Assembly: GCA_030706405.1 (NCBI GenBank)
Contig: JAUZOO010000016.1
Coordinates: forward strand, 1-64,000
Source of the DNA: Bacteroidota bacterium
Lineage (GTDB): Bacteria; Bacteroidota; Bacteroidia; Bacteroidales; JAAUTT01
Direction of reading: 5' to 3'
Length of the DNA: 64,000 bases
Position 1 is the stretch's first letter. Every line of letters starts with the position of its first letter. Under the pieces are notes generated by a model that was not told where the DNA came from, searched no databases, and was given only the letters and a program-made list of their open reading frames with translations. The position numbers were made by a program, and so were the translations under genes. Of the stretch, positions 1-13,304 are shown one piece after another.

Positions 1-3000
1 AACTCCCCTGCGATTTGTTGTGATTTGCTTTCAGATTGTATCTTTGAAATACTGGCTTACACCCAAAGATCATAACCTTTAAATCCGTCCACAGTTGTGA
101 TTTGCTTTCAGATTGTATCTTTGAAATACTGGCTTACACCATATTTTTCATAGCTGCGGTTGCTTTTGCAGTTGTGATTTGCTTTCAGATTGTATCTTTG
201 AAATACTGGCTTACACCTGTAGTTTTTGAATCGTTCTATCGCCGCCCGTTGTGATTTGCTTTCAGATTGTATCTTTGAAATACTGGCTTACACCACATAT
301 CAGTTATTTAATGACCCGAAGCATGTTGTGATTTGCTTTCAGATTGTATCTTTGAAATACTGGCTTACACCATCAGTAAAATATTCAGTGTATATCAATC
401 CGTTGTGATTTGCTTTCAGATTGTATCTTTGAAATACTGGCTTACACCAAGGACGACCCTAACGAAATGAAGGTTTTCGTTGTGATTTGCTTTCAGATTG
501 TATCTTTGAAATACTGGCTTACACCAATAAATCAAACTACAAGTTATCAATTTAAGTTGTGATTTGCTTTCAGATTGTATCTTTGAAATACTGGCTTACA
601 CCCCATCAACGCATTATTGGGCGTTTACAGAAGTTGTGATTTGCTTTCAGATTGTATCTTTGAAATACTGGCTTACACCCAAATGTTGCGCCAGTTTTAA
701 GGTTTACTGGTTGTGATTTGCTTTCAGATTGTATCTTTGAAATACTGGCTTACACCGCTTGGATTGAAGATTACCGAAGCCTTTATGTTGTGATTTGCTT
801 TCAGATTGTATCTTTGAAATACTGGCTTACACCACGGAGGGTTAAACGGGTTTGATGACCGTAGTTGTGATTTGCTTTCAGATTGTATCTTTGAAATACT
901 GGCTTACACCAGTGCTTTATAATATCCAAAAGAACCAGCCGTTGTGATTTGCTTTCAGATTGTATCTTTGAAATACTGGCTTACACCTAAAGCTCAGACA
1001 GGTATCGACGGTAAACGGTTGTGATTTGCTTTCAGATTGTATCTTTGAAATACTGGCTTACACCTCTTATGATGTTGATGATTTTCTGTATTGTGTTGTG
1101 ATTTGCTTTCAGATTGTATCTTTGAAATACTGGCTTACACCCTAAATGCAAGTAATATATTCACTTTATTAGTTGTGATTTGCTTTCAGATTGTATCTTT
1201 GAAATACTGGCTTACACCAAAACCTCCAGCGAGGAAACGCGGCACGTTGTTGTGATTTGCTTTCAGATTGTATCTTTGAAATACTGGCTTACACCTTCAG
1301 CACCTTTGTTTCCGTCGGTGTTATCGTTGTGATTTGCTTTCAGATTGTATCTTTGAAATACTGGCTTACACCTAAATCTAGATATTTATAGATGTTATTT
1401 TAGTTGTGATTTGCTTTCAGATTGTATCTTTGAAATACTGGCTTACACCATTTTTTTTGTACATTCGTACTTTAAACCAGTTGTGATTTGCTTTCAGATT
1501 GTATCTTTGAAATACTGGCTTACACCAGGTCTCTGATGAGAGGCACGGGCACATTAGTTGTGATTTGCTTTCAGATTGTATCTTTGAAATACTGGCTTAC
1601 ACCCACCTGCGTCAATATACTTGCTTCCGGAGGGTTGTGATTTGCTTTCAGATTGTATCTTTGAAATACTGGCTTACACCCTTTGCGTCCTCGTGTAATT
1701 GGCCATATTCGTTGTGATTTGCTTTCAGATTGTATCTTTGAAATACTGGCTTACACCTAATCCTAAAATTTCAGCATCAGCAAATTTGTTGTGATTTGCT
1801 TTCAGATTGTATCTTTGAAATACTGGCTTACACCTTAGTTGCTGTTTGCCCTTCATGTAAAAGCGTTGTGATTTGCTTTCAGATTGTATCTTTGAAATAC
1901 TGGCTTACACCATTGCTTACAATCACGATTATTTAGGTCTAGTTGTGATTTGCTTTCAGATTGTATCTTTGAAATACTGGCTTACACCTAATGAAACAAA
2001 CGAAGATTGGTTAAATTTGTTGTGATTTGCTTTCAGATTGTATCTTTGAAATACTGGCTTACACCAATCACAAAGTAGTATTGGAGCAGATGCTAGTTGT
2101 GATTTGCTTTCAGATTGTATCTTTGAAATACTGGCTTACACCAATTTATAGTATGATAATGATTTTTGCGTAGTTGTGATTTGCTTTCAGATTGTATCTT
2201 TGAAATACTGGCTTACACCTACCGCTAATAACTATTCGAATATTATCCCGTTGTGATTTGCTTTCAGATTGTATCTTTGAAATACTGGCTTACACCCAAG
2301 AAATAGTACGACAACTGCATTTAAAAGTTGTGATTTGCTTTCAGATTGTATCTTTGAAATACTGGCTTACACCATCCGCCAGATGTTGATTATTATCAAA
2401 CAAGTTGTGATTTGCTTTCAGATTGTATCTTTGAAATACTGGCTTACACCTTGATAAATTTATCATTGCTGTTTGTGATAGTTGTGATTTGCTTTCAGAT
2501 TGTATCTTTGAAATACTGGCTTACACCGCACGGCCGAAAAGGACTGGAAGAGGCTATGTTGTGAGTTGCTTTCAGATTGTATCTTTGAAATACTGGCTTA
2601 CACCATTTAACTTCAGAACAAATATATTCTATTCGTTGTGATTTGCTTTCAGATTGTATCTTTGAAATACTGGCTTACACCAAATGCAAATGTTGGAAGC
2701 AAGCCACCATAGTTGTGATTTGATTTCAGATTGTATCTTTGAAATACTGGCTTACACCGATGTAATCACTCACATTTTCAGGTCGCTCGTTGTGATTTGC
2801 TTTCAGATTGTATCTTTGAAATACTGGCTTACACCTTTGGAATAATAGAAGCACTACGCCTAACAGTTGTGATTTGCTTTCAGATTGTATCTTTGAAATA
2901 CTGGCTTACACCTCGACGCGTGAACGCCAAATACTATTTTCAGTTGTGATTTGCTTTCAGATTGTATCTTTGAAATACTGGCTTACACCCCGTCTTTATT

Positions 3001-3066
3001 TATCAATCCTTTGAAATTAGTTGTGATTTGCTTTCAGATTGTATCTTTGAAATACTGGCTTACACC
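1..3066 (+). CRISPR. Type II-C CRISPR array; 40 repeats of 47 bp (GTTGTGATTTGCTTTCAGATTGTATCTTTGAAATACTGGCTTACACC) with 39 full 30-nt spacers; continues off the left edge (1-16 is a partial spacer)
   Basis: Repeat starts at 17, 94, 171 ... 3020 with constant period 77. crRNA orientation is + because the 5' half of the repeat pairs with the tracr anti-repeat at 10942-10964. Variant repeats at 2558 (GTTGTGAG...) and 2712 (...TTGATTTC...). Confidence 0.98.
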
Positions 3067-3151
3067 ATACCTATGGGTATGTTTTTATAAGTCAAATTTT
3101 TAAGTGTTAAAACAGAATTAAAAAAGGGTAGGTAAAGGGTAAGCCATAGCG

Positions 3152-3187
3152 AAAAGGGCTGGGATTTTATAATCCTAAGCCCTTTTT
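3152..3187. terminator. Rho-independent terminator-like hairpin between array and cas2
   Basis: AAAAGGGCTgGGATtttataATCCtAAGCCCTTTTT: GC stem plus flanking A/T tracts, usable from both sides. Confidence 0.65.
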
Positions 3188-3191
3188 GCTT

Positions 3192-4700: not shown

Positions 4701-5186
4701 CCTCTCACTTAAACGTGCTTTTCAAGACTTCGGCTGTTTCACTCAAAAAACTACGGATCAAAGGCTGAAATCGCCTAAACTCATGTCCTCGTTCCTCGGC
4801 CACTCAAACAAAGACGATTTTTAACCGCCTTTGTTCCTTGTTTTTTGGCTCACCAGCCAAGGTCGGTCCTACATTTCATCTCGACCGTCTTATAAAATTT
4901 CAAATGCGTTTGCCCTACAGTTGCTCCGTAGTAGGATATGAGTCTGACAAAGGTGTAATTATGGAGGCATCATATTTCTTTTCAGAAATTTGTTTTTTAA
5001 AATTTAATACATATTTTTAACTAATTATAAACCACAAACAACTTAGTTGCAATGCTTTCTATCGGTTTATAAATTACAAACACTAACATCAACGTTAATA
5101 AAATAAACGCATTAACAAGCGGAAGCCGAAAAGCTGATTAGAGTAGGCATGTTACTTTTATTTTCAATTACTTAATTTTTCAATTT

Positions 5187-5915
5187 ATGAGTGTATTACA
5201 CAAAATCAAAGCATGGTTGTACGACAACCCGCTTACCGAAGATCCCAACGACTTTGTAGCCAGGGTTAGTGCCGAACGCAGCCTTTCGGTACGCGAAATT
5301 TGCGAATCGGCTGTTAAACGTGGTGGTGCCGATGTTTCTGCGGCATCAATGGAACATAGCCTCAACCTTTTTCACAAAGAGATGGCTTACCTGCTGTGCG
5401 ACGGTTATTCGGTAAACACCGAGTATTACCAGGCCTCCCCGCTGATTACGGGCGTATTTAACAGTCCCAAAGAAACATTCGACCCGGAGAATCACTCCAT
5501 TTCATTCGCATTTAGACAGGGAGCTTTGTTGCGCAACGAATTATCGTCGGTTTCGGTCGATATTTTGGGCGTTGCCGAAAACGGCTCTTATATTGCCCAG
5601 GTGGTTGATGTAAAAACAGGCTCGGTAAACGATATTATAACCCCTGGCCGAAACCTGAAGGTTAAAGGTTCTAAAATTAAAGTAACTGGTGAGCACGAAG
5701 ATGTTGGTATTTTCTTTATCAACCAATCGAATCTACAATCTACCAAAGTTGACCTCTCCGATATTGTTACCAACAAGCCCTCGGAGCTGATCATTGTAGT
5801 TCCAACCCTAACAGCTGGGTCGTATAAACTACAGGTGGCAACACAGTTTACCAACAGCCTTCTTTTAAAGGAACCCAGGTTTATTACTTCGGATAAAACT
5901 CTAACGGTTTCGTAA
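5187..5915 (+). CDS. HU-like DNA-binding N-terminal domain plus DUF4469-like C-terminal domain protein
   Basis: 242 aa; MSVLHKIKAWLYDNPLTEDPNDFVARVSAERSLSVREICESAVKRGGADVS resembles the HU-like/DUF4469 family widespread in Bacteroidota; lies opposite in strand between cas1 and cas9. Confidence 0.7.
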   Translation: MSVLHKIKAWLYDNPLTEDPNDFVARVSAERSLSVREICESAVKRGGADVSAASMEHSLNLFHKEMAYLLCDGYSVNTEYYQASPLITGVFNSPKETFDPENHSISFAFRQGALLRNELSSVSVDILGVAENGSYIAQVVDVKTGSVNDIITPGRNLKVKGSKIKVTGEHEDVGIFFINQSNLQSTKVDLSDIVTNKPSELIIVVPTLTAGSYKLQVATQFTNSLLLKEPRFITSDKTLTVS

Positions 5916-5943
5916 TTATATTAACGCCTGTTAGCGGGAGGCA

Positions 5944-6017
5944 CTACAACCCGTTAGTGTCACCCACTAACGGGCGTTAGCGTCACCCACTAACGTGTTG
6001 TAGTGGGTGACGCTAAA
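5944..6017. repeat. Compound inverted-repeat element between the passenger gene and cas9 (possible bidirectional terminator)
   Basis: CCCGTTAGTG/CACTAACGGG (5951-5975) and TTAGCGTCACCCACTA/TAGTGGGTGACGCTAA (5978-5993/6002-6017), plus alternative pairing ACTACAACcCGTTAGTG/CACTAACGtGTTGTAGT. Confidence 0.8.
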
Positions 6018-6069: not shown

Positions 6070-9000
6070 CTAATTTTGGTATCCTTTTACACCAACAATT
6101 TCTCCCAGTCGATTTACTTTCAATTTCCAGCAACAATCTTTTATCATAACACCTTCGATAGATCTCTCCATTTTATTTAATGCTGAAAACTCCACTTTGT
6201 TGACAATTGTATTAGCTATATCATGACGGACAAAGAAACATTGTGAACCAGAGGAGCTAACAGCTTTATATATGTTATTCACTTGTTCTTTTGTTAAATT
6301 TCTAAAATTAACTAAATATGGTTTCTCCAATTCTTCAGGCGTTGGAACATAAACAAGATCATTAGGGGAAAGATAAAATAGCAATTGATATTCTTTTAAA
6401 TTTTTAGGATCGATATAAGTTAGAGCTACCGATGATAAACCTTGTTTTTGGTTTTCAATCACAATATTTAAAGGAATAGTATCACAGATTCGTTTTCCAT
6501 TTTCATCGGCATAGATGGCAAAAAACAAATTAGTTCCTTTAGCAGCTTCTACAAACTTTGATTTTTTGCTGCCTGTAACACCGACATTGAACTTTTTACC
6601 TTTGGGTTCGTAGGTACGCACTTTAGTAATGGGTTGATGAAATTTATTTCCATTAAGTGCTAATATATTTTCATTAAGATCGTCGATGCCATCGGAAGAA
6701 AAGGCCAATGACTCGGAAGGTATTATTTTCCCGCTTTCATCTTTTTGATTTTGGAATTTATCCTGATTGAGGTGCTTTAACAGTATTTTTTGAATGCCGG
6801 TATCGGTAATACTTTCTATCCGTTGTGCATTAAAACTGTCATCAAGGTTCACTCTTGAGGCTACATTATCACTATCGTAATAATAGATTTCAACTTTGGA
6901 CACGTCTTTTTCATTCCATTTATTCTCATGGCCTTTAAAGTATTTTTGAATCTTCTTTTTGTCATCACCATTACTGATAAGCTCTTTAATTTTGGCTCTT
7001 AATGATTTATCGACTATCATATCGACATTATCAATGGCTACAGAAAGCAGTACTACTTTTTTAAACCGCAAAGTAATACTTCCGGAAACGGTATCCTTAT
7101 GCATTGGTTTACGTATTGCCCAACTATCGCCTTTGGTTTGGGTGACCAATATTTTTTTGAGATTACCTTCCTCATCTTTTTGCCACTTCTGATATTTATT
7201 GACGGTTTTATTGATGACCCTCAAATTTTGTTTAAAACTAACGACAGTTGACAATAGCGCCTCGCGACTATCTTGGGTAAAAGTATCCCAAGGTTTTATA
7301 AACTCCTTTGCTACTGAAATGGTTTTACTAATTTGTTTTCCATTTACCGTTCTTACAATTTGTACATTTTCAATGCGCCTCAATTTCTTTCGTAAATCAA
7401 AACGGATTTCTTTTTTATCAGGCCGGGCATATTCGTTATTCAAATAATTAATATGGTTACGTGTGGCGCAGGCTATCACAAGAGCATCCATAGCATGATG
7501 GCGATGGTCAATACGTTTTTTGCTAAAGCCTTTTTGTAACTCCAACGGAATTTCGGTCTGAAACACCTTTTTCCCAGCTTTGTTAGTCCATTGCCCAAAG
7601 TTATTACTATTGGTAAGCGAATTTAATCGTTCAAAACGAGGGGTAATTATTTCGTTCCAAATATCGTTTAATCCCCAATCTTGTTTTAAAATGGTCGTAA
7701 TACTACCATTGCTTGATAATACATTCTTTGAGGTGCTTTCTTGTTCGTCATTCTCGCGTACAATATTTGATAACAATCCTTTTACAACTTTACTAATATA
7801 ACGGCTATCGTTCATTTGACGGGCAATGAATGAATCCGGAATGTCTTCCATCAGAAGCTTTTTCATTTTGCTTCTATTGCCGGCAAAACTCTTTTTCACA
7901 TGTTCTTCGTAAGCATTGAGTGTCAATATGGATACTTCTTTTCCAAAACTTAGCTCAATCTTTTTACCGCTGTTGTTTTTTATGTATTCGTAAGCTGTGC
8001 AATTGTCTTTATCGGCATTTACCTCAGCTTCGCATATAACTTTATTGCTCAGCGAATCGTCAAAATATCGGGATTGGGGAATGATATGTTCTATCTGATA
8101 GGCTGGCGTAAAAAGTTTACTCAGAGGAATCATTTCGCCGGTATAAGGAGAGCAGTACCCTTGGTCCAGCCAAACTTTGTAACGGATTAATTCTGATTTG
8201 GAAGGCTGGGCGCTCTTTTTTATTTTCAAGATTTCGTCAGGGATTTCGTCAATTGAATTTAATACGCCTTCTTCATATATTTTAAGTATTTCCTGTTGGC
8301 TTGGCGAATAAGGACGAACATTTTCAATCGAATCATCATTAAGCATTTCGGACAGCAGGGCTTTGATACGGAGGTTCGTATTTTCATTCTCTGTAACTAT
8401 ATCGGACATTGCCTTGCGCTTATCTGCCGGATTTTTCATTTCGCGCCCCAGTTCAATATGTATTTCGCTAAAGAAATCAGGCTCACTATTGCCGTATTGT
8501 TTCCATATATCGCTTACCACCCGTAACGTTTCGGTGATTACCTGTTCTACAATTGGATTGCGGAGAGAATGTTGTTTGAATTCTTCGCGAAGGTACAGTT
8601 CAATATCTGTTGGAGTCCCCCACTTTTTAATATCTCCGGCTTCAGAATGCCTATCATAAACGATATAACAAGCTAACCAAACAGGGATATTTTGAAAATC
8701 TTCTATCGTATTAAAGTTAATTGCTTTTTCGCGCACTTGGGTTCTTATCTTTTCATCGACTTCTCCATTTAGAATTTTTAAAATTCTTTCTTTCGTATTA
8801 ACATCAATGTTGGCTTCATTCCAATATTTTCCGCGCCGCATCAGCGACAATAACTTTTTAATAGCCTTAGCCGAATAAGAACCGTAATCTTTTTTAAATG
8901 GAGGAAACTTTTTAAAATTATCGACAAAATCGTCGCCCAGATTGTTTTTGTCGGCAAAGGTTTTCAATGCTTTTACAATGTCTACTTTGTCTTCAACCGA

Positions 9001-10677
9001 ATATAAAATATGCCATAATGAGATTGTTTTCTCTTCGGTTAAAAAGCCTTCGGGAACACTGTTCACTTTGGATAAGCGATTTAGAATTTGAGCCCGGGTT
9101 TCATTGCATGGATAAATCTTATCCTCAACATAGTTCCAACGGTACTTTTCGGCATCTTTTTTAAGATTAAAAGCTGGATACTTCAAAAAAGCCTTTTGGT
9201 CAATTTCTTTCCTTTCGTTAAGCCAATCGTATAATATAGTCCAGTCTTCTTCTGTTTTTAAGAAATCTTTAGTAACATTTACATCTGTTTCGACTTTCCC
9301 ATTCACCACTTTTTCTTTGGCATAAATCTTAAGGTTTTGAAGAAACTGCCATAATCTATATTCCTGAAATAATGGATGTGATTTGGCGATACATTTTAGT
9401 GGCTCTTCTTCTAATTTTCCTTCTTTCTTAAACCTGCGAACCTCGTACTGGCAATTGCTGATGAGCGATTTTTTGCTTTTCAGAGGGCGTTGATAAAAAA
9501 TAATATCATTTACAAACAGATGTATAAAATCTTTATTGCCGATACTCGCCCTGTGGCTGTCATTGTATTCATAAAGTTCCTCTAAGCAAGCTTTATATAA
9601 TTGGGGGTCGTTTAGCTCAGGATGAAATTCTTTTTGTTTTTCAAGAATGAGAATTAATTCTTCTTTGTAGAATTTACGTTCAATTGTCCTTACCAGTTTA
9701 CCTTTTATTTTCTGGTGTGGATTTTGAAGCAACGTGTCGTAAATGTAGCAGCCTACTGTTTTATGACTTTGGTCTATATCTGCTTCGGTTTTTTTCTTGA
9801 CTAATGTCCAGTCGTTTTCTTGAGGAGCCCTGAACGAACGTTTTTCTTTTCCTTCTTTATCCGTTTTCACATTTCCGTTTTCATCAATTTCGGTAGTGAC
9901 AATAAAATCTTTGGTCTTGCCCACCCAATCTAATGGAGTTTTGCTGTTACGTCGATAAATCCATCCATTTTCGAGTATAACATTGTACCATATTCCATCT
10001 TTACCCTTTCTATCGCCACTGTCTACAACCTCAATCACTTTTAAAGAGTAAAATTCAACTAGTCTGTTCTTACTCTCATTATCTTCTTCATCTTCTCCCC
10101 GTAATTGATAATAACCTCTTTTCTGATTAAAATTTAATAACAACCACGCGAGTTCTCCTTTTTCGATTTTAGCAGATAACGCCTTTTTGCGTAAGTAATA
10201 GATAGTCCAATCGTAAGGTATCTTTTTATCATTCTCAAAAAGTTGGGGCTGACTTTCTCTGAAATCGTTGACCATTTCCATAAACGATGTAAAAAAAATG
10301 AACTCGCCTTTTTCTGTTTCCGGATTATTTCGATAGGTTAATTTCGGTTCAGAGTCGTCCAAAAACTGTCCCGGATTCTTATCAAAATCAATAGAACTAC
10401 TATAATGAGAAGGAAGAAAGCCCAAAATATTTAAAATCCTGAGTAATCGTTCGCGTCGCAGAAGATTTCGCTCCCGTAGTCGTCGGATTCCTCTAAATCC
10501 AGTTCTTTCTGCTGTCTGTGAAATAGAGTTACCACGGTCAAACTCTCCTAAAATATCCTGAGACATTGGAATAATTCTGCTTCCCAATCCTAGTATTTCT
10601 TTTTTTTCGTCAGTTTCATTTACCAGCGCCCAACCAATTGAGTTAGTTCCTAAATCAAGCCCAAGAGTTATCTTCAT
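6070..10677 (-). CDS. cas9: CRISPR-associated endonuclease Cas9, type II-C, 1535 aa
   Basis: RuvC-I MKITLGLDLGTNSIGWALV; Arg-rich bridge helix RGIRRLRERNLLRRERLLRIL; RuvC-II SEIHIELGREMKNPADKR; HNH YQIEHIIPQSRYFDDSLSNKVICEAEVNADKDN; RuvC-III DHRHHAMDALVIACA. No csn2 or cas4 nearby. Confidence 0.98.
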   Translation of the reverse strand: MKITLGLDLGTNSIGWALVNETDEKKEILGLGSRIIPMSQDILGEFDRGNSISQTAERTGFRGIRRLRERNLLRRERLLRILNILGFLPSHYSSSIDFDKNPGQFLDDSEPKLTYRNNPETEKGEFIFFTSFMEMVNDFRESQPQLFENDKKIPYDWTIYYLRKKALSAKIEKGELAWLLLNFNQKRGYYQLRGEDEEDNESKNRLVEFYSLKVIEVVDSGDRKGKDGIWYNVILENGWIYRRNSKTPLDWVGKTKDFIVTTEIDENGNVKTDKEGKEKRSFRAPQENDWTLVKKKTEADIDQSHKTVGCYIYDTLLQNPHQKIKGKLVRTIERKFYKEELILILEKQKEFHPELNDPQLYKACLEELYEYNDSHRASIGNKDFIHLFVNDIIFYQRPLKSKKSLISNCQYEVRRFKKEGKLEEEPLKCIAKSHPLFQEYRLWQFLQNLKIYAKEKVVNGKVETDVNVTKDFLKTEEDWTILYDWLNERKEIDQKAFLKYPAFNLKKDAEKYRWNYVEDKIYPCNETRAQILNRLSKVNSVPEGFLTEEKTISLWHILYSVEDKVDIVKALKTFADKNNLGDDFVDNFKKFPPFKKDYGSYSAKAIKKLLSLMRRGKYWNEANIDVNTKERILKILNGEVDEKIRTQVREKAINFNTIEDFQNIPVWLACYIVYDRHSEAGDIKKWGTPTDIELYLREEFKQHSLRNPIVEQVITETLRVVSDIWKQYGNSEPDFFSEIHIELGREMKNPADKRKAMSDIVTENENTNLRIKALLSEMLNDDSIENVRPYSPSQQEILKIYEEGVLNSIDEIPDEILKIKKSAQPSKSELIRYKVWLDQGYCSPYTGEMIPLSKLFTPAYQIEHIIPQSRYFDDSLSNKVICEAEVNADKDNCTAYEYIKNNSGKKIELSFGKEVSILTLNAYEEHVKKSFAGNRSKMKKLLMEDIPDSFIARQMNDSRYISKVVKGLLSNIVRENDEQESTSKNVLSSNGSITTILKQDWGLNDIWNEIITPRFERLNSLTNSNNFGQWTNKAGKKVFQTEIPLELQKGFSKKRIDHRHHAMDALVIACATRNHINYLNNEYARPDKKEIRFDLRKKLRRIENVQIVRTVNGKQISKTISVAKEFIKPWDTFTQDSREALLSTVVSFKQNLRVINKTVNKYQKWQKDEEGNLKKILVTQTKGDSWAIRKPMHKDTVSGSITLRFKKVVLLSVAIDNVDMIVDKSLRAKIKELISNGDDKKKIQKYFKGHENKWNEKDVSKVEIYYYDSDNVASRVNLDDSFNAQRIESITDTGIQKILLKHLNQDKFQNQKDESGKIIPSESLAFSSDGIDDLNENILALNGNKFHQPITKVRTYEPKGKKFNVGVTGSKKSKFVEAAKGTNLFFAIYADENGKRICDTIPLNIVIENQKQGLSSVALTYIDPKNLKEYQLLFYLSPNDLVYVPTPEELEKPYLVNFRNLTKEQVNNIYKAVSSSGSQCFFVRHDIANTIVNKVEFSALNKMERSIEGVMIKDCCWKLKVNRLGEIVGVKGYQN

Positions 10678-10690
10678 GATATATTATTTT

Positions 10691-10712
10691 TTTATTTCAT
10701 TATACTGTACAA
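10691..10712 (-). promoter_or_regulatory. Candidate Cas9 self-target: 13-bp protospacer (10700-10712, - strand TTGTACAGTATAA) plus 3' flank TGAAATAAA (10691-10699)
   Basis: Perfect reverse complement of 10862-10874, the 13 nt immediately 5' of the degenerate repeat; overlaps the predicted cas9 -7/TSS region. Confidence 0.75.
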
Positions 10713-10742: not shown

Positions 10743-10874
10743 TTAAAATATGGAATAAATATATGTTCCAAACAGCCGTATCTGTTAAGAAGAACTCCAA
10801 AAACATATCTGAGAGTTGCACTTTTTTTTAATTAAACACCATGATTATATTGTATCATCTTTTGTACAGTATAA

Positions 10875-10905
10875 GTTGTGATTTGCTTCAAATTGTACTT
10901 CACAC
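10875..10905 (+). repeat. Degenerate, internally shortened CRISPR repeat GTTGTGATTTGCTTCAAATTGTACTTCACAC
   Basis: First 14 nt identical to the array repeat; middle TCTTTGAAATACTGG missing; end CTTCACAC resembles CTTACACC. Confidence 0.88.
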
Positions 10906-10929: not shown

Positions 10930-10937
10930 TATATTTG
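10930..10937 (+). promoter_or_regulatory. -7 element of the predicted short-form tracrRNA promoter (TATATTTG)
   Basis: Exact match to TAnnTTTG about 5 nt before the anti-repeat; no clear TTG at -33 spacing. Confidence 0.5.
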
Positions 10938-10941
10938 CTTC

Positions 10942-11018
10942 TACAATTTGAAGCAAATCACAATAAGGATTATTCCGTTGTGAAAACATTTAAGGCGGCG
11001 CAAGTCGCCTTTTCTTTT
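10942..11018 (+). ncRNA. tracrRNA (short form), type II-C
   Basis: Anti-repeat TACAATTTGAAGCAAATCACAAT pairs with the repeat 5' half; AAGGATTATTCCGTTGTGAAAACATT tail; AAGGCGgcgcaagtCGCCTTTT terminator at 10992-11013. Confidence 0.93.
10992..11018 (+). terminator. tracrRNA terminator
   Basis: AAGGCG-GCGCAAGT-CGCCTT followed by TTCTTTT. Confidence 0.85.
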
Positions 11019-11262
11019 ACCCCTCCCCTTTCATTTTTGTTGAAGTCAATTCTTTTCCCCGTTACTTCTAACAATAATTTTAGTCTCATTTCGCGATAAT
11101 AAATTATAACATAAAATTTTTGGCTTATCGGGCATAGCCCAATTTAACGCCATTACAGATAATCGTAAATGTTAGTTAAACAAAGCTCGACTACACTCTA
11201 AAAATAAATATTTTAAGCTCAAGCACATAATTAATGTCGATAATTTTTAAGACAATTTATGA

Positions 11263-11320: not shown

Positions 11321-11328
11321 TATCTTTG
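11321..11328 (+). promoter_or_regulatory. -7 promoter element TATCTTTG for the ABC-F gene
   Basis: Matches TAnnTTTG; 24 nt before the ATG. Confidence 0.5.
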
Positions 11329-11351: not shown

Positions 11352-13304
11352 ATGATTTCAGTTAATCAGCTTACGGTTCAGTTTGGAGGTGTTGACCTTT
11401 TTAAGGATGTGTCGTTCCTTATCAATCCTAAAGACAGGATTGGTTTGGTAGGAAAAAACGGGGCCGGAAAATCAACCATGTTGAAAATCCTTTGCGGGAT
11501 GCAGCAACCGCAATCGGGCGAGGTAATTATCCCCGACGAGGCCAAAATTGGCTATCTTCCGCAGCAGATGATTCATCAGGACGGGAAAACCGTAATCGAT
11601 GAAGCCCGCACCGCTTTCGACGAGGTTTTAAGTGTAGATAAACGCATCCACGAACTAAACCACGAGCTAAGCCTGCGCGAAGATTATGAAACACAGTCGT
11701 ACCTCGACCTGATCCACGAAATCTCGGAGCTCTCCGACCGTTTCCATATCCTTGGTGGGGCCAGCATTGACGAATCGCTCGAACAGACGCTTCTTGGACT
11801 CGGTTTCTCCATGTCCGATTTTCACCGCCAAACGAAAGAGTTCAGCGGAGGATGGCGCATGCGTATCGAACTTGCCAAAATCCTGCTTCGCCGTCCCAAC
11901 GTTTTATTGCTCGACGAGCCTACCAACCACCTCGACATCGAATCGATCCAATGGCTCGAAAACTATATCAAGGATTTCAGCGGGGCTGCGGTTATCATCT
12001 CGCACGATAAGGCTTTTCTCGACAACCTCACCACCCGCACCATCGAAATTTCGCTCGGAAAAATATACAATTACAAAGCGGCATATTCCGAATATGTTGA
12101 GCTTCGTAAGGAGCGCCGCGAACAACAGATGGCGGCCTACCTCAACCAGAAAAAGATGATTGAGGATACCGAAGATTTTATCGAACGTTTCCGTTACAAG
12201 GCCACTAAAGCCGTTCAGGTGCAGAGCCGCATTAAACAGCTCGACAAGGTGGAACGCCTCGAAGTTGACGAGGAAGACAACTCGGCCATCAACATTAAAT
12301 TTCCACCAGCTCCACGCTCGGGCACCATCGTGGTTGAAGCCAAAGAAGCCAGCAAACGGTATGGCGAAAAACTTATCCTCGACAACATCGACTTTGTAAT
12401 TGAACGGGGCGAAAAAGTAGCGTTTGTGGGTAAAAATGGCGAAGGGAAGTCGACTTTTTCCAAAATGATTATGGAAGAAATCGACTATACCGGTCATTGT
12501 AAAGTTGGGCACAACGTGTCCATCGGCTATTTTGCCCAAAATCAGGACGAGCTCATGGACGAGAACGCCACCGTTTTCGACACCATCGACCGCATTGCTG
12601 TGGGCGATATCCGCACTAAAATCCGCGACCTGCTTGGTGCATTCCTATTCCGGGGCGAGGAAGTAGACAAAAAGGTAAAGGTACTCTCCGGAGGCGAACG
12701 TTCGCGCCTGGCCATGGTTAAGCTATTGCTTCAACCTGTAAACCTGCTTATACTCGATGAGCCCACCAACCACCTGGATATGCGCTCGAAGGATATCCTG
12801 AAACAAGCCCTCCTGAATTTCGACGGTACGCTGATCTTGGTTTCGCACGACCGTGAATTTCTCGACGGACTGGTAGACAAGGTCTATGAATTCCGCGATC
12901 ACAAGATAAAACAACACCTGGGAGGTATTTACGAATTTCTTCAGAAACGCAAACTCGAAAACTTTGCCGAACTAGAACGAAAAACCAAACCTGCAACCGA
13001 ACAGGTAGAGAAAGAGGCTTCGGCTGTAAAGGTCGATTATCTCGAAAAGAAAGAGATGGACAAGGTTATCCGGAGAGTAAACCAACAGGTAGCCGCGGCC
13101 GAAAAGAAAATTGAAGAACTGGAAAAAGAACTCGACGACATTACTCACCTGCTTTCTAATCCCGATAAAATAGAAAAAGGTTCGGAAGAAAAGCTTTACA
13201 TACGCCATGGTGAAGTCGAAAAATTACTCGAACAGGAGATGTCAAACTGGGAACAGCTGAACACCGAACTGGAAGGGTTAAAAGAACAGCGTTTCCAGAA
13301 TTGA
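11352..13304 (+). CDS. ABC-F family ATP-binding cassette protein
   Basis: 650 aa; duplicated Walker A (GKNGAGKST, GKNGEGKST), ABC signatures FSGGWRMR and LSGGERSR, LLLDEPTNHLD. Confidence 0.95.
   Translation: MISVNQLTVQFGGVDLFKDVSFLINPKDRIGLVGKNGAGKSTMLKILCGMQQPQSGEVIIPDEAKIGYLPQQMIHQDGKTVIDEARTAFDEVLSVDKRIHELNHELSLREDYETQSYLDLIHEISELSDRFHILGGASIDESLEQTLLGLGFSMSDFHRQTKEFSGGWRMRIELAKILLRRPNVLLLDEPTNHLDIESIQWLENYIKDFSGAAVIISHDKAFLDNLTTRTIEISLGKIYNYKAAYSEYVELRKERREQQMAAYLNQKKMIEDTEDFIERFRYKATKAVQVQSRIKQLDKVERLEVDEEDNSAINIKFPPAPRSGTIVVEAKEASKRYGEKLILDNIDFVIERGEKVAFVGKNGEGKSTFSKMIMEEIDYTGHCKVGHNVSIGYFAQNQDELMDENATVFDTIDRIAVGDIRTKIRDLLGAFLFRGEEVDKKVKVLSGGERSRLAMVKLLLQPVNLLILDEPTNHLDMRSKDILKQALLNFDGTLILVSHDREFLDGLVDKVYEFRDHKIKQHLGGIYEFLQKRKLENFAELERKTKPATEQVEKEASAVKVDYLEKKEMDKVIRRVNQQVAAAEKKIEELEKELDDITHLLSNPDKIEKGSEEKLYIRHGEVEKLLEQEMSNWEQLNTELEGLKEQRFQN

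What the first reader, a model, noticed from the sequence alone, without database searches (positions are those of the whole stretch)
17..3066. Every CRISPR repeat carries a Bacteroidota promoter (TTG-N18-TATCTTTG)
SEEN: repeat positions 2-4 are TTG and 23-30 are TATCTTTG, separated by 18 nt, in crRNA direction, repeated 40 times. TATCTTTG also sits 24 nt upstream of the ABC-F gene start (11321-11328). KNOWN: Bacteroidota primary-sigma promoters follow TTG-N17-23-TAnnTTTG; Neisseria and Campylobacter II-C repeats contain embedded promoters that transcribe each crRNA individually. INFERENCE: convergent repeat-embedded promoters exist in this 47-bp repeat, with starts near the repeat 3' end, which may explain why the repeat is long.
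Basis: partly seen in the sequence, partly recalled or inferred. Interest (0 to 1): 0.72.

Follow-up and report, generated by a model that had tools for sequence, protein, structure and literature searches.

The report
CRISPR repeats that carry promoters
Each repeat of this bacterial CRISPR array contains a well-conserved copy of the Bacteroidota promoter box, so each guide RNA is probably transcribed from its own start; next to cas9, a lone worn-down repeat looks like a guide that lets Cas9 shut off its own gene.

Summary
All 40 repeats at 17-3066 contain TTG-N18-TATCTTTG; nothing else in the window matches. The locus is type II-C (cas9-cas1-cas2, array after cas2) and crRNAs read toward cas2. 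The interpretation survives its own refutation test. Across 61 distinct II-C repeats from Bacteroidota relatives, TAnnTTTG is the commonest gapped word in the repeat 3' half (37/61; about 1 by shuffling; 0/61 on the opposite strand). On a Cas9 tree the six fixed bases changed 0-7 times, the two n positions 10 each, flanking bases 12-28, although the box shifted position at least 23 times. The tracrRNA genes of the same loci carry the same box at a fixed distance, and it decays the same way. I judge repeat-embedded promoters likely (0.78); no RNA data were available. The idea was already proposed for Flavobacterium II-C arrays from the TTG alone; the conserved -7 box is the addition. The claim that it explains the 47-nt length fails: 36-37-nt repeats keep the box.

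Second result: a solitary degenerate repeat beside tracrRNA lacks the box, and its 13-nt 5' flank matches the cas9 promoter. Eight further loci share the design: a likely Cas9 self-repression guide, not previously described for II-C in papers read here.

The parts
17..3066 (+). CRISPR array, 40 repeats of 47 nt and 39 spacers of 30 nt, each repeat with TTG (2-4) and TATCTTTG (23-30)
39..46 (+). first of 40 copies of the -7 box TATCTTTG (period 77)
   Evidence: conservation
3067..3191 (.). AT-rich stretch between the last repeat and cas2; candidate leader, at the crRNA-downstream end
   Evidence: leader position by analogy with F. columnare II-C (PMC8092290)
3192..3527 (-). cas2
   Evidence: TIGR01573
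3528..4439 (-). cas1, type II
   Evidence: TIGR03639 cas1_NMENI
6070..10677 (-). cas9, 1535 aa
   Evidence: TIGR01865
10710..10717 (-). candidate -7 element of the cas9 promoter (TATAATTG, one mismatch)
10700..10712 (-). 13-nt target of the solitary guide in the cas9 promoter (TTGTACAGTATAA); PAM side TGAAATAA (10692-10699)
10862..10874 (+). guide part of the solitary degenerate-repeat RNA, identical to the cas9 promoter target
10875..10897 (+). solitary degenerate repeat (5' half only, no TAnnTTTG), complementary to the anti-repeat over 23 bp
10930..10937 (+). TATATTTG, candidate -7 box of the short tracrRNA
10942..11019 (+). tracrRNA: anti-repeat, nexus and terminator
11321..11328 (+). TATCTTTG before the ABC-F gene (11352-13304)

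Best explanation
The 47-nt repeat is a composite element. Nucleotides 1 to about 24 pair with the tracrRNA; nucleotides 23-30 (TATCTTTG) are the -7 box of a Bacteroidota primary-sigma promoter, possibly with TTG 2-4 as -33; the last nucleotides mirror the first. Each repeat fires transcription into its downstream spacer, starting a few nt after TTTG (around repeat positions 34-36, inferred), so each primary transcript carries about 12 nt of repeat, the spacer and the next repeat. New spacers are probably added at the cas2-proximal end, which is downstream of transcription, so a single upstream promoter would leave the newest spacers farthest away; here the upstream end is a truncated repeat overlapping the stop codon of an acyl-CoA-ligase-like gene, with no leader. 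Shown: presence, strand, conservation pattern and resemblance to the tracrRNA promoter boxes. Inferred: initiation, start position, acquisition polarity.
For: TAnnTTTG is the commonest of all XXnnXXXX words in the 3' half of 61 distinct relatives' repeats: 37, the next 25 and overlapping it; 0 on the opposite strand. Shuffled 3' halves give 1.04 on average, maximum 6 in 2000. Anchored without favouring any of the 8 positions, parsimony steps on the Cas9 tree are T5 A5 n10 n10 T2 T0 T7 G6, against 12-20 just upstream and 15-28 just downstream, with at least 23 shifts of the start position. Exact boxes with a TTG-to-box gap of 17-24 nt: 36 of 61, all at 18-22. In 115 distinct tracr regions the same box sits at -33..-25 from the anti-repeat core in 72, and in 0 of the equally wide window 42 nt upstream; one-mismatch variants fall mostly on the last two positions, as in the repeats. 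Solitary degenerate repeats that keep the tracr-pairing half lack the box, 0 of 9, so tracr pairing does not require it. In the window TAnnTTTG is about six times denser upstream of genes than inside them. Published RNA-seq in F. columnare shows within-array reads toward the leader (8 reads; PMC8092290), and the F. psychrophilum array is transcribed (PMC10309648).
Against: No transcript data for this locus. Shared descent contributes: the n positions are TC in 28 of 38 exact repeats against 8 of 56 phased tracr boxes, so something beyond sigma preference holds the TC. In Chryseobacterium and relatives most repeats read TATCTTCG or TATCTTAG. A few repeats (L148, L154) have no recognisable box. 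The TTG cannot be tested apart from the tracr-pairing sequence. The upstream excess is weak on strand (11 sense, 8 antisense).
Confidence: 0.78

Rival explanations
1. TATCTTTG is conserved because the Cas1-Cas2 integrase or a helper protein reads a mid-repeat motif during spacer integration; any promoter activity is incidental.
For: The box is in every array repeat, is absent from solitary degenerate repeats that need no integration, and its n positions are more TC-biased than in tracr promoters.
Against: The box start shifts at least 23 times on the tree and lies 13-26 nt from the repeat 3' end, awkward for an integrase ruler; it shares form and tolerated variants with the phased tracr promoter boxes.
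Confidence: 0.15
2. The array is transcribed as one long pre-crRNA by read-through from the upstream acyl-CoA-ligase-like gene or a distant promoter, and processed by RNase III with tracrRNA.
For: That gene (L105 6108-8024) reads in the crRNA direction and its stop codon lies inside the truncated first repeat, so read-through is possible.
Against: It does not account for strand-specific conservation of a sigma box in the repeat. Both modes could coexist.
Confidence: 0.15
3. The motif is an accident of an AT-rich repeat family with common ancestry.
For: Repeats are AT-rich and related.
Against: Neighbouring bases of the same repeats changed several-fold more often on the same tree; the opposite strand has none.
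Confidence: 0.04

Closest known systems
Repeat-embedded promoters of Neisseria and Campylobacter type II-C arrays
   Same: II-C; a promoter in every repeat; crRNAs started individually and toward the leader (reviewed in PMC8616872; PMC8092290).
   Different: Bacteroidota sigma box in mid-repeat instead of a sigma-70 -10 at the repeat end (the latter from my own knowledge); predicted start inside the repeat, leaving a 5' repeat tail; 46-47-nt repeats.
Proposed repeat-encoded promoter of Flavobacterium columnare and F. psychrophilum II-C arrays
   Same: Same phylum and subtype, same direction; TTG in the repeat taken as -33 (PMC8092290, PMC10309648).
   Different: Those papers name only the TTG in the repeat; the TAnnTTTG box in the repeats and its phylum-wide conservation are added here. 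The Riemerella study found no potential promoters in its repeats (PMC5006608).
tracr-L natural single-guide RNA (type II-A) and CreR/scaRNA-type self-regulation
   Same: Repeat-like sequence beside tracrRNA; 11-13-nt match to the cas promoter next to a PAM-like sequence; in the window it folds as one RNA with tracrRNA.
   Different: Type II-C in Bacteroidota. PMC8616872 describes tracr-L as not found outside II-A; PMC13131331 lists CreRs in I-B, I-E and V-A. In Chryseobacterium-like loci the element ends in its own terminator-like hairpin, so it would act in trans like a short crRNA.

Membership tests
CRISPR-Cas type II-C | cas9, cas1 and cas2 only, no csn2 or cas4, tracrRNA present | tested here: met
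   TIGR01865, TIGR03639, TIGR01573; the only other long ORF between cas9 and the array has no NCBIfam match; tracrRNA by anti-repeat and fold
Rfam CRISPR-DR49 repeat | reaches the family gathering score | tested here: not met
   full-length matches at 32.6 bits against gathering 41; resembles, not filed as a member
Bacteroidota primary-sigma promoter | -7 box TAnnTTTG | tested here: met
Bacteroidota primary-sigma promoter | -33 TTG 17-23 nt upstream | tested here: inconclusive
   present at N18, but the same bases belong to the tracr-pairing sequence; [quoted passage not shown] johnsoniae RNA-seq
Repeat-embedded promoter array | a transcription start at every repeat | not testable with these tools
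   no RNA data held
Natural Cas9 self-targeting guide (tracr-L-like) | repeat-like sequence able to pair with the anti-repeat of tracrRNA | tested here: met
   23-bp helix in one fold, z = -7.2
Natural Cas9 self-targeting guide (tracr-L-like) | short guide matching the cas promoter | tested here: met
   13 nt in the window, 11-12 nt in seven other loci, one further locus with one mismatch in 11 nt
Natural Cas9 self-targeting guide (tracr-L-like) | a functional PAM beside the target and repression without cleavage | not testable with these tools
   sites share NNAAAT in 10 of 11; PAM not determined, no credible protospacers found in phages

The most novel reading that the evidence does not exclude
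Type II-C systems of Bacteroidota have, in several lineages, turned a solitary degenerate repeat between cas9 and tracrRNA into a guide with an 11-13-nt spacer that directs Cas9 to its own promoter at or just after the -7 element, repressing cas9 without cutting; in the window it forms a single guide with tracrRNA, in Chryseobacterium-like loci a separately terminated short crRNA. It is the promoter-less counterpart of the promoter-bearing array repeat.
Probability: 0.8. Interest if true: 0.68.

Novelty: new variant of a known kind. Interest (0 to 1): 0.6.

Why it matters
If true, many Bacteroidota II-C arrays, including those of gut Bacteroides, make each crRNA from its own promoter, so new spacers are expressed at once although they enter at the transcription-downstream end; this predicts crRNA 5' ends and tells how to build arrays for these hosts. 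The solitary guide would extend Cas9 self-repression to II-C, with guide and promoter changing together, and gives a simple genetic test.

Tried and rejected
Repeat length explained by the promoter: rejected, 36-37-nt repeats keep the box. A global MAFFT alignment of the repeats blurs the box because it moves while repeat length stays fixed; replaced by anchoring on all 8 positions alike. An early column table restricted to repeats with at most one mismatch is biased toward the motif and is not used for the rates. PAM from protospacers: the window array against phages gave no credible protospacer; the tracr region against plasmids hit only the tracr core. Two repeat-like elements in L129 beyond tracrRNA gave no convincing promoter match. 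A general scan with weak repeat-like sites returns some chance guide matches: 7 expected among 604 sites at 9 nt or more, so only strong repeat-like sites between cas9 and tracrRNA were kept. No II-C repeats from other phyla were available as an outside control. Literature searches cover the open-access library only; the original Neisseria II-C, tracr-L and CreR papers were seen only through reviews.

Full report
WHAT IS THERE. Positions 17-3066 hold 40 repeats of 47 nt at a 77-nt period, 38 identical and two with a single substitution. TTG-N18-TATCTTTG occurs exactly 40 times, once per repeat, and nowhere else in the window. The window is contig C8 from its first base, so the array is cut at the left; contig C3 ends in 25 full repeats and one truncated repeat of the same sequence and orientation. 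That these are one array is inferred. On C3 the first repeat has lost its first seven nt and overlaps the stop codon of a 638-aa acyl-CoA-ligase-like ORF (named by eye, not by a family search), so there is no leader at the crRNA-upstream end. On the other side come an AT-rich stretch, cas2, cas1, a 242-aa ORF on the opposite strand, cas9 and, divergent from cas9, the tracrRNA. This is a II-C locus. In F. columnare II-C, spacers enter at the end toward which the array is transcribed (PMC8092290); the truncated repeat at the far end fits that here.

IS THE BOX CONSERVED? Cas9 relatives were collected from the phylum, the order and one family and from GTDB contigs (loci fetched). Arrays were found by script, giving 61 distinct repeats. 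TAnnTTTG is exact in 37, one mismatch in 22; shuffling the repeat 3' half gives 1.04 on average and at most 6 in 2000. Among all words of the form XXnnXXXX it is the most frequent; on the opposite strand it is absent. To avoid favouring the fixed positions, each repeat was anchored at its best match to the full TATCTTTG and changes counted by parsimony on a Cas9 tree: T5 A5 n10 n10 T2 T0 T7 G6; the four bases before 15, 12, 20, 19; the six after 22, 28, 22, 15, 22, 25. The start of the box moved at least 23 times. The box is thus kept while it slides, its free positions change about twice as often as its fixed ones, and its neighbours more often still. A caveat: anchoring by best match lowers apparent change inside the window for all eight positions alike, so the contrast between n and fixed positions is the cleaner evidence.

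AN INTERNAL YARDSTICK. The tracrRNAs of these loci need promoters too. In 115 distinct regions TAnnTTTG is exact in 72 within a nine-position window before the anti-repeat core, against 0 in an equal window 42 nt further upstream; one-mismatch variants fall mainly on the last T and G. The repeats vary at the same two positions (T>C, T>A, G>A). One difference remains unexplained: the n positions in repeats are mostly TC, in tracr boxes most often TA.

WHAT IS NOT SUPPORTED. Repeats of 36-37 nt carry the box too: L112 TATCTTAG, L038 TATCTTTG, L039 TTCTTTTG. The extra nucleotides of long repeats lie after it, so the promoter does not explain the length. TTG at 2-4 is inside the near-invariant GTTGTG and cannot be judged separately.

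PRIOR WORK. Embedded promoters in Flavobacterium II-C arrays were proposed from the TTG alone, with sparse RNA-seq toward the leader (PMC8092290, PMC10309648). The Riemerella study reported no potential promoters in the repeats (PMC5006608). A search for TAnnTTTG with CRISPR and crRNA found only the F. psychrophilum paper, which applies it to cas9.

A SECOND ELEMENT. Between cas9 and tracrRNA lies a solitary degenerate repeat (10875-10897) that pairs with the anti-repeat over 23 bp; with tracrRNA it folds as one RNA, -48.6 kcal/mol, z = -7.2. The 13 nt before it equal the cas9 promoter at 10700-10712 on the cas9 strand, overlapping its candidate -7 element. Most relatives lack such an element, but eight others have it (L035, L049, L070, L071, L075, L193, L197, L219). 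Their guides match their own cas9 promoter over 11-12 nt (L071 over 11 with one mismatch), with random-guide frequencies of 33 in 20000 or less for the exact cases. Guides of unrelated loci do not match each other's promoters beyond 8 nt; L197 carries GTGCAG in both guide and target where its relatives carry GTACAG in both. L070, L075 and L219 share a guide and are not independent. Ten of eleven target sites are followed by NNAAAT. None of the nine elements contains TAnnTTTG; six of nine have a strong hairpin followed by T-rich sequence after the repeat part. This is the anatomy of tracr-L or CreR-type self-repression, described for II-A and for I-B, I-E and V-A in papers read here (PMC8616872, PMC13131331). 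Transcription and repression are not shown.

VERDICT. A real, widely conserved promoter-like box in the repeat, most likely used; a new variant of the II-C embedded-promoter theme rather than a new kind. The solitary guide is the more novel part of the locus.

Noticed in passing
window 10862-10897 and 10700-10712: Solitary degenerate repeat beside tracrRNA whose 13-nt 5' flank matches the cas9 promoter; eight further loci with the same design.
   Followed up: yes
L075 and L219, upstream of cas9: The cas9 promoter region seems duplicated, each copy with its own -7-like box and an 11-12-nt guide target.
   Followed up: partly
L129, 316 and 426 nt upstream of cas9: Two repeat-like elements on the far side of tracrRNA without a clear cas9 promoter match; perhaps an array remnant.
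   Followed up: partly
window 5116-5149 (+): Rfam DUF805b RNA above its gathering score, just before the 242-aa ORF at 5187-5915.
   Followed up: no
window 5187-5915 (+): ORF between cas1 and cas9 on the opposite strand, no NCBIfam match.
   Followed up: partly
window 5916-6010: Intergenic run of inverted and repeated CGTTAGTGGGTGAC-like segments.
   Followed up: no
L105 8018-8064: Terminal repeat truncated at its 5' end and overlapping the stop codon of an acyl-CoA-ligase-like ORF.
   Followed up: yes
L051, L023, L070 repeats: Several repeats have a small palindrome around the box (GTATC-TTTGA-GATAC).
   Followed up: no
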